From positions 1-50,213 of the forward strand of contig JAQSWW010000035.1 in NCBI GenBank assembly GCA_029266415.1: DNA of 50,213 nucleotides, read 5' to 3'. This document shows positions 26,385 through 27,148 of this stretch, piece by piece (position 1 is the stretch's first letter; every line of letters begins with the position of its first letter). A model generated the notes under the pieces. The model was not told where the DNA came from and searched no databases. It worked only from the letters and a program-made list of their open reading frames with translations. Source of the DNA: Actinomycetospora sp. GTDB lineage: Bacteria; Actinomycetota; Actinomycetes; Mycobacteriales; Pseudonocardiaceae. Both the position numbers and the translations under genes were made by a program.

Positions 26385-26400
26385 TCGAACACCTGTTCGA
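26385..26400. promoter_or_regulatory. LexA/SOS box
   Basis: TCGAACACCTGTTCGA, perfect match to actinobacterial consensus TCGAAC-N4-GTTCGA; ends 13 nt before ATG 26414. Confidence 0.85.
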
Positions 26401-26413
26401 CGAGAATAAGGGC

Positions 26414-27062
26414 ATGCCCCGACCTCGTCTCTGGACCGACGACCAGCTCCGCGAAGCGGTCGCGGCGAGCGCGACTCTCGCGGAGGTGCACCGTCGCCTC
26501 GGGCTGCGCCCGGGCAAGTACGCGGTGATCCTGAAGCACATCGAACGCTTGGGCCTGCCGCACGACCACCTCATGGCGACCATCAACGGGAAGCGGAGAC
26601 CACGGCAGGCGCGGACGTGGTCGGACGAGGAGTTGCTCGCTCTCGTGGCCCGATCGTCGAGTCTCGCCGAGGTGATCCGTGCGGTGGGCCGCGAGCCGAA
26701 CGGGGGATTCCACCGGTGGATGTCCGGACGGCTGAAGGCCATCGGAGCAGACACGTCGCACTTCACGGGTCAGGGCTGGGCGCGTGGCCGATCGTTCAAA
26801 GGCCGCGGGATGCCCCTCGACGAGCTGTTGGTCAAGGGATCGACGATCGGTTCCGGCAAGCTGCGCCGGCGGTTGATCGAGGAGGGGCTCAAGGAGTCCC
26901 GGTGCGAGGGCTGCGGACGAGACGAGTGGCGTGGTGCGCCGCTTCCGCTCCAGCTCGACCACGTCAACGGCGACCACACCGACAACCGCCTGGAGAACCT
27001 CCGTTATCCTCTGCGGCAACTGCCACTCGCAGACCGACACCTGGTGCCGGTCGCGGTCGTAG
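26414..27062 (+). pseudogene. HNH endonuclease with two N-terminal HTH-like repeats; 1-nt frameshift near 27005
   Basis: CEGCGRDEWRGAPLPLQLDHVNGDHTDNRLENLR in frame 26414; with one T removed at CGTTATC it continues ILCGNCHSQTDTWCRSRS* (TAG 27060-27062). Confidence 0.85.
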
Positions 27063-27074
27063 TCCAACGGCAGA

Positions 27075-27148
27075 GCCGGCGTATTCCAACAGGCAGAGAA
27101 CCGCGGCTTAGAACCGCGCCAGTGCGGGTTCGAATCCCGCCGCCGGCA
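27075..27148 (+). tRNA. Atypical class-I tRNA, anticodon UAG (nominal Leu, CUA codon)
   Basis: Acceptor GCCGGCG/CGCCGGC 7 bp; anticodon arm CGCGG-CTTAGAA-CCGCG; variable CCAGT (5 nt); T-arm GCGGG-TTCGAAT-CCCGC; D-arm weak; no encoded CCA. Confidence 0.75.

What the first reader, a model, noticed from the sequence alone, without database searches (positions are those of the whole stretch)
26385..27148. SOS-controlled HNH nuclease plus atypical tRNA cassette
Seen: a perfect palindromic SOS box TCGAACACCTGTTCGA ends 13 nt before the ATG of an HNH endonuclease with duplicated HTH-like N-terminal segments (LWTDDQLREAV... and TWSDEELLALV...). Twelve nt after its recovered stop codon, on the same strand, begins a 74-nt tRNA-like gene, and the whole unit is wedged against bcp. 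Established: actinobacterial LexA binds TCGAAC-N4-GTTCGA, and HNH families are common in phage and homing elements. Inference: a DNA-damage-inducible nuclease-tRNA module, for example a homing or selfish element, an SOS-triggered tRNA supply or decoy, or a defence unit.
Basis: partly seen in the sequence, partly recalled or inferred. Interest (0 to 1): 0.82.

Follow-up and report, generated by a model that had tools for sequence, protein, structure and literature searches.

The report
tRNA-Leu-targeting homing nuclease, SOS-controlled
A selfish DNA-cutting gene, switched on by DNA damage, sits against an essential leucine tRNA gene whose promoter it appears to contain, and its relatives sit beside or inside leucine tRNA genes across very distant bacteria.

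Summary
In detail: perfect LexA box, HNH gene (frameshifted in this assembly), then a class-I tRNA with anticodon UAG abutting bcp. The reading changes. The tRNA is not exotic cargo: in the complete relative G003 it is the only UAG tRNA, and class-I Leu tRNAs occur in 57 of 61 genomes of the order. The HNH is the mobile part. Of its 80 closest homologues in 85,488 species genomes, 71 have a tRNA-Leu (UAG, UAA or CAA, class I or II) within 130 nt downstream, 3 in antisense. Three more lie inside group I introns of tRNA-Leu(UAA), and two lie beside a tRNA-Leu cut off or masked in the record. No other tRNA species occurs there. Best explanation: a free-standing homing endonuclease family targeting tRNA-Leu genes. 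In Pseudonocardiaceae it carries a LexA box (21 of 26 loci, at most one mismatch) and, overlapping the invariant codons CGT-ATC-CT, a probable -10 promoter element of the tRNA; every decayed copy keeps it. The tRNA's anticodon arm is hypervariable, always paired, in HNH-bearing genera but nearly constant in HNH-free ones, as expected of an evolving cleavage target. Cleavage, homing and LexA binding are inferred, not shown. A new variant of a known kind.

The parts
26385..26400 (+). LexA/SOS box TCGAACACCTGTTCGA
   Evidence: perfect match to TCGAAC-N4-GTTCGA; same place in 21 of 26 Pseudonocardiaceae HNH loci with at most 1 mismatch
26414..27062 (+). HNH endonuclease gene: two N-terminal HTH-like segments plus a zinc HNH domain; frameshift (extra T) at 27005, frame regained at 27006, stop TAG 27060-27062
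   Evidence: sister G004 (79% identical) is unbroken
27002..27010 (+). putative -10 element of the tRNA promoter embedded in HNH codons (CGT(T)ATCCT; TATCCT at 27005-27010), about 70 nt before the tRNA
   Evidence: invariant rare CGT codon in 25 of 25 genes; motif kept in 18 of 18 decayed or truncated copies and in 5 of the HNH-free loci
27060..27074 (+). leader TAGTCCAACGGCAGA resembling the tRNA D-arm, between the HNH stop and the tRNA
   Evidence: similar leaders in several relatives
27075..27148 (+). class-I tRNA-Leu(UAG), the resident and probably only UAG tRNA; anticodon at 27109-27111
27149..27625 (-). bcp (peroxiredoxin), the conserved neighbour

Best explanation
The HNH gene is a free-standing homing endonuclease belonging to a family specialised on tRNA-Leu genes. 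It recognises or cuts a tRNA-Leu gene lacking the nuclease gene, and repair from the occupied allele copies the HNH gene in directly upstream of the tRNA, with co-conversion of tRNA sequence. In Pseudonocardiaceae it is LexA-repressed, so it should be expressed when RecA-dependent repair is active. Its 3' coding end overlaps what looks like the -10 element of the tRNA promoter, so insertion leaves the only tRNA-Leu(UAG) transcribed and deletion of the whole gene is costly. The occupied tRNA escapes cutting through compensated changes in its anticodon arm. Shown here: genomic association, intron-encoded relatives, SOS boxes, the synonymous constraint, decay patterns, hypervariable tRNA. Inferred: cleavage, site, homing, LexA binding, promoter activity, escape.
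For: 71 of the 80 best homologues have tRNA-Leu within 130 nt downstream, no other tRNA species. Three homologues are encoded in 705-789-bp introns of tRNA-Leu(UAA) after U34; ARAGORN reads two as intron-split tRNA-Leu(UAA), and all three spliced exons as tRNA-Leu(UAA). Three antisense cases with an intact tRNA plus one with the tRNA cut off by the contig end (L225, L237, L239, L250) make the tRNA a target, not a co-transcribed partner. Patchy and decaying distribution: 7 of 18 Actinomycetospora, 47 of 64 Pseudonocardia of which 15 truncated or broken; 5 of 45 family genera. LexA box with at most 1 mismatch at -10 to -29 (one at -5 from a longer match) in 21 of 26 loci. Codon R209 is CGT in 25 of 25 genes although CGT is 10% of Arg codons; CGTAT[CT]CT lies 50-79 nt before the tRNA in 26 of 26 intact and 18 of 18 decayed loci versus 2 chance hits in 60 kb. 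Within Actinomycetospora UAG tRNA mean pairwise difference 0.232, CAA 0.093, UAA 0.027. Anticodon-arm diversity 0.447 and 0.393 in HNH-bearing genera g1 and g5, 0-0.07 in HNH-free genera.
Against: No cleavage or transfer event is seen. HNH and neighbour-gene synonymous divergences do not clearly exceed vertical expectation. CAA tRNA, with no HNH found beside it, is also moderately variable. Position-32 alleles track HNH presence in Actinomycetospora but not in Pseudonocardia. Some HNH-free loci (G062, G072, G081, G197) lack the CGTATCCT motif, so other promoters can serve. Some family members in phage tRNA arrays adjoin other tRNAs (tRNA-Glu/Gly in Rhodococcus phage Francesca).
Confidence: 0.8

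Rival explanations
1. The HNH and tRNA form a co-transcribed functional module: DNA damage induces both, and extra tRNA-Leu(UAG) supports translation of CUA-containing stress genes or acts as a decoy.
For: Same strand, 12-nt gap, conserved SOS box and order in Actinomycetospora.
Against: The tRNA exists without HNH in 10 of 17 genus genomes. Relatives are antisense to the tRNA or inside its intron. A probable separate tRNA promoter lies inside the HNH end. HNH copies decay while the tRNA stays.
Confidence: 0.08
2. The HNH is a domesticated host nuclease (for example SOS-induced cleavage of its own tRNA locus or of invading DNA), not a mobile element.
For: LexA control conserved across two genera; intact genes in 32 Pseudonocardia species; HNH domain also resembles ZorE/McrA-type nucleases weakly.
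Against: Patchy, decaying distribution; strict tRNA-Leu association across phyla without the SOS box; no partner genes; best PADLOC model is 'homing endonuclease'.
Confidence: 0.08
3. tRNA genes are merely frequent safe-harbour insertion points; the HNH has no specificity for tRNA-Leu, and the UAG tRNA varies because CUA is a rare codon.
For: Many mobile elements use tRNA genes; some phage relatives adjoin other tRNAs.
Against: Only Leu among 71 nearest tRNAs; intron-encoded relatives in tRNA-Leu(UAA); the UAA tRNA, also a rare-codon tRNA in such GC-rich genomes, is nearly constant; UAG is constant in HNH-free genera with the same codon bias.
Confidence: 0.04

Closest known systems
Free-standing ('intronless') homing endonucleases of T4-like phages (seg and mob genes, e.g. 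SegB in the tRNA region, MobE; PMC2988022)
   Same: Intergenic nuclease gene beside a conserved target; promoters of essential neighbours embedded in the endonuclease coding region; HNH type for mob
   Different: Bacterial chromosome, one tRNA species as partner across phyla, LexA box, target apparently an essential tRNA gene; no mobility shown here
Group I intron-encoded HNH homing endonucleases (I-HmuI type) and 'collaborative homing' (reviewed in PMC2988022)
   Same: Homologues inside tRNA-Leu(UAA) group I introns after U34
   Different: In the window there is no intron; the gene stands 12 nt before the tRNA; the I-HmuI structure is only a weak fold match
13E12/DUF222-HNH genes of the mycobacterial LexA regulon (PMC4181829)
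   Same: HNH gene behind a TCGAAC-N4-GTTCGA box in an actinobacterium
   Different: No DUF222 domain and no tRNA link; a true DUF222 gene with its own box exists elsewhere in this genome
Phage-like tRNA clusters with HNH genes in Mycobacterium (PMC6582537)
   Same: HNH genes among tRNA genes; a short-variable-loop tRNA-Leu(TAG)
   Different: Those are extra tRNAs in acquired clusters; here the class-I tRNA is the resident, sole UAG tRNA

Membership tests
HNH homing endonuclease (free-standing) | HNH catalytic motif with zinc cysteines | tested here: met
   D179 H180..N199..H201 and C161/C164/C197/C200 invariant in 29 homologues; HNH_3/HNH models. In the window the frameshift at 27005 removes the last part
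HNH homing endonuclease (free-standing) | Separate DNA-binding domains | tested here: met
   AlphaFold model with two three-helix units before the HNH fold, mean pLDDT 87.5, pTM 0.44
HNH homing endonuclease (free-standing) | Gene lies next to or inside a conserved target | tested here: met
   71 of 80 beside tRNA-Leu, 3 inside its intron
HNH homing endonuclease (free-standing) | Presence/absence polymorphism with decaying copies | tested here: met
HNH homing endonuclease (free-standing) | Site-specific cleavage and biased inheritance | not testable with these tools
   needs biochemistry and crosses
HNH homing endonuclease (free-standing) | Horizontal spread against the host tree | tested here: inconclusive
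   anticodon arms shared between species groups and genera but synonymous divergence does not exclude vertical descent
LexA regulon | Box matching TCGAAC-N4-GTTCGA near the start codon, kept in orthologues | tested here: met
   other boxes of this genome precede a radical SAM gene and a DUF222-HNH gene
LexA regulon | LexA binding and DNA-damage induction | not testable with these tools
   -
13E12 / DUF222-HNH family | DUF222 domain | tested here: not met
   Pfam scan finds HNH_3 only
Group I intron endonuclease | Gene inside a group I intron | tested here: not met
   window tRNA is uninterrupted; met only in homologues L233, L243, L254
Anti-phage defence system | Known defence gene or operon partner | tested here: not met
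   best PADLOC model 'homing endonuclease'; neighbours are a hydrolase, the tRNA and bcp
Housekeeping tRNA-Leu(UAG) | Intact cloverleaf, sole decoder of CUA, kept in all genomes | tested here: met
   census of G003; 17 of 17 genus loci; full base pairing with compensation

The most novel reading that the evidence does not exclude
A DNA-damage-licensed selfish nuclease drives through populations by cutting an essential tRNA gene, replaces it with a recoded, cut-resistant allele, and makes itself hard to lose by holding that tRNA's promoter inside its own coding sequence. The same nuclease family has done this, or become an intron endonuclease, at tRNA-Leu genes across much of the bacterial domain, and it drives the evolution of the tRNA.
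Probability: 0.4. Interest if true: 0.85.

Novelty: new variant of a known kind. Interest (0 to 1): 0.68.

Why it matters
Free-standing homing endonucleases are known mainly from phages. Here one family is tied to a single housekeeping tRNA species on chromosomes of Actinomycetota, Nitriliruptoraceae, Deltaproteobacteria and many candidate phyla, with intron-encoded relatives at the classic tRNA-Leu(UAA) intron site. [quoted passage not shown] LexA control of such a gene, a tRNA promoter overlapping its codons, and fast compensated change of an essential tRNA's anticodon arm are each directly testable in culturable, harmless Pseudonocardia and Actinomycetospora. It also explains 'HNH plus odd tRNA' annotations that might be taken for a toxin or defence system.

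Tried and rejected
Codon reassignment of CUA by a class-I UAG tRNA: considered, not pursued once class-I UAA and CAA Leu tRNAs appeared in the same genome. Programmed frameshift or tRNA-dependent frameshift suppression in the window HNH: rejected, because homologues have no extra T at that site; decay or an assembly error is likelier. A general rule that HNH-bearing tRNAs have C at position 32: holds in Actinomycetospora but fails in Pseudonocardia. Horizontal transfer from HNH versus bcp and hydrolase synonymous divergence: inconclusive. A PDB relative of the whole protein: none. Rfam scans of two intron loci did not report the group I intron, probably because the HNH gene splits it. Searches used a pattern with one base too many and found nothing anywhere, G000 included; they carry no information and were replaced. 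One search lists only part of its matches, so g5 rests on 29 genomes.

Full report
WHAT IS THERE. The window (G000:C27; genus Actinomycetospora, family f1 = Pseudonocardiaceae by its named neighbours) carries TCGAACACCTGTTCGA at 26385-26400, an HNH gene from ATG 26414, a tRNA at 27075-27148 and bcp in convergent orientation from 27625, its stop touching the tRNA 3' end. The HNH frame has one extra T at 27005, within the codons of the HNH motif NLR|ILC. The last 18 codons and the TAG at 27060-27062 are readable in the next frame. Sister genome G004 (79% identical) has the same stretch without the extra T, so this copy is freshly broken or misassembled.

THE tRNA IS RESIDENT. In all 17 Actinomycetospora genomes with a readable locus a class-I UAG tRNA stands next to bcp, with or without the HNH gene. 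An RF00005 census of the complete genome G003 gave 49 genes over the cut-off. Among them are five Leu isoacceptors: UAG, UAA and CAA are class I, GAG and CAG class II, and there is no second UAG tRNA. A covariance model of the class-I Leu tRNAs finds members in 57 of 61 genomes of the order, while a class-II UAG pattern hits only 7, none in the family. So the 'atypical tRNA' is the normal tRNA-Leu(UAG) of this group, and the HNH gene is the newcomer.

THE HNH FAMILY GOES WITH tRNA-LEU. The 80 best homologues among 85,488 species genomes were fetched by protein similarity alone. ARAGORN finds a tRNA-Leu within 130 nt downstream in 71, 68 on the same strand and 3 antisense: 33 UAA, 31 UAG, 7 CAA; 37 class II, 34 class I; no other tRNA species. 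Of the nine left, three (L233, L243, L254) are encoded inside a 705-789-bp intron of tRNA-Leu(UAA) inserted after U34. ARAGORN itself reports L233 and L243 as tRNA-Leu(taa) with an intron, and the spliced exons of all three fold as tRNA-Leu(taa); sequences resembling the group I core flank the HNH gene (Rfam itself did not score these introns). One (L250) has a truncated antisense tRNA and one (L267) a partly masked tRNA-Leu. Only L229, L238, L248 and L255 lack it at close range. In several candidate-phylum genomes the order is tRNA-Cys, HNH, tRNA-Leu(UAA), which by my knowledge of the common gly-cys-leu tRNA cluster looks like an insertion into that cluster. Hosts include Nitriliruptoraceae, Deltaproteobacteria, Acidobacteria, Armatimonadetes, Saccharibacteria and many other candidate phyla. 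Antisense and intron-embedded members mean that the tRNA gene is a target rather than a co-transcribed partner. Phage members sit in tRNA arrays, next to tRNA-Leu(CUA) in GodonK but next to tRNA-Glu/Gly in Francesca, so strict Leu association belongs to the chromosomal clade.

LIFE CYCLE OF A SELFISH GENE. HNH occurs in 7 of 18 Actinomycetospora and 47 of 64 Pseudonocardia genomes, 32 near full length and 15 truncated or broken. It is found in 5 of 45 genera of the family, one of them only by a weak match.

PROMOTER INSIDE THE GENE. In 25 non-redundant intact Pseudonocardiaceae genes the Arg codon of NLRIL is CGT in all 25, although CGT makes up 10% of Arg codons in these genes and the Arg five codons earlier uses five different codons. 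The only other codon with a marked excess is its Leu neighbour. This fixes CTCCGTATCCT. The string CGTAT[CT]CT stands 50-79 nt before the tRNA in 26 of 26 intact and 18 of 18 decayed or truncated loci. It also stands 22-63 nt before the tRNA in five HNH-free loci (G078, G082, G087, G019, G151), there in bcp-tRNA spacer DNA. In 60 kb of comparison sequence it occurs twice on both strands together. Decayed copies always keep this 3' end and often lack the rest. GC-rich homologues from other groups use other codons there. The simplest reading is a -10 element of the tRNA promoter, embedded as in T4 segG and gene 32 (PMC2988022). Promoter activity is inferred. The window's extra T leaves the TATCCT hexamer intact.

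SOS CONTROL. A box with at most one mismatch precedes the start in 21 of 26 Pseudonocardiaceae loci and matches the mycobacterial consensus (PMC4181829). Other boxes in this genome precede a radical SAM gene and a DUF222-HNH gene. No box is found in the homologues outside this family, so SOS control is a local addition. I infer that it times the nuclease to RecA-rich conditions. Since the tRNA seems to have its own start, an SOS-driven tRNA supply is not needed, though read-through is possible.

tRNA UNDER PRESSURE. Within 17 Actinomycetospora genomes the mean pairwise difference is 0.232 for the UAG tRNA, 0.093 for CAA and 0.027 for UAA. Across the family the 17-nt anticodon arm shows 8 versions in 16 Actinomycetospora and 14 in 29 Pseudonocardia genomes, almost all pairs intact, against one or two versions in each HNH-free genus, including 24 genomes of g8 (one of which has the weak HNH match) and 10 of g61. 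Genus g3, where one genome has an HNH gene, is intermediate. The anticodon itself never changes in these loci; the search pattern requires it, but the loci were found through bcp. This fits escape from a nuclease whose intron-encoded relatives insert in the anticodon loop. It does not prove it, and CAA tRNA also varies somewhat.

VERDICT. Real, conserved and informative. The HNH gene is best explained as a tRNA-Leu-targeting homing endonuclease under LexA control. My searches of an open-access literature library found no description of this family; that is not proof of absence.

Noticed in passing
L144, L145, L146 (G003); G001-G060: In the order around this genome three of five Leu isoacceptors (UAG, UAA, CAA) can be class-I tRNAs without the long variable arm; 57 of 61 genomes have at least one. 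How LeuRS handles both classes in one cell is a question of its own.
   Followed up: partly
window 27060-27074: The leader between the HNH stop and the tRNA (TAGTCCAACGGCAGA) resembles the tRNA's own D-arm, in several HNH-bearing and HNH-free relatives; cause unknown.
   Followed up: no
L069 (G000:C22): A radical SAM gene behind a perfect SOS box has an insert of about 150 residues beginning CLGPDTPVLMVDGT and ending VISHN-C, which looks like an intein.
   Followed up: no
L071 (G000:C120): A DUF222-HNH (13E12-like) gene with its own perfect SOS box in the same genome, as in Mycobacterium tuberculosis.
   Followed up: partly
L008 (G050:C1:3072270): In another family of the order a different, longer HNH gene sits between bcp and a class-II tRNA-Leu(UAG): the same locus and isoacceptor with another nuclease and another tRNA class.
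   Followed up: no
L243:2110-2323 minus strand: A second group I intron (Rfam RF00028, 62 bits) on the opposite strand close to the HNH-bearing tRNA-Leu intron.
   Followed up: no
G018: One family member has six class-I Leu tRNA matches, twice the usual number, two of them adjacent on contig C12.
   Followed up: no
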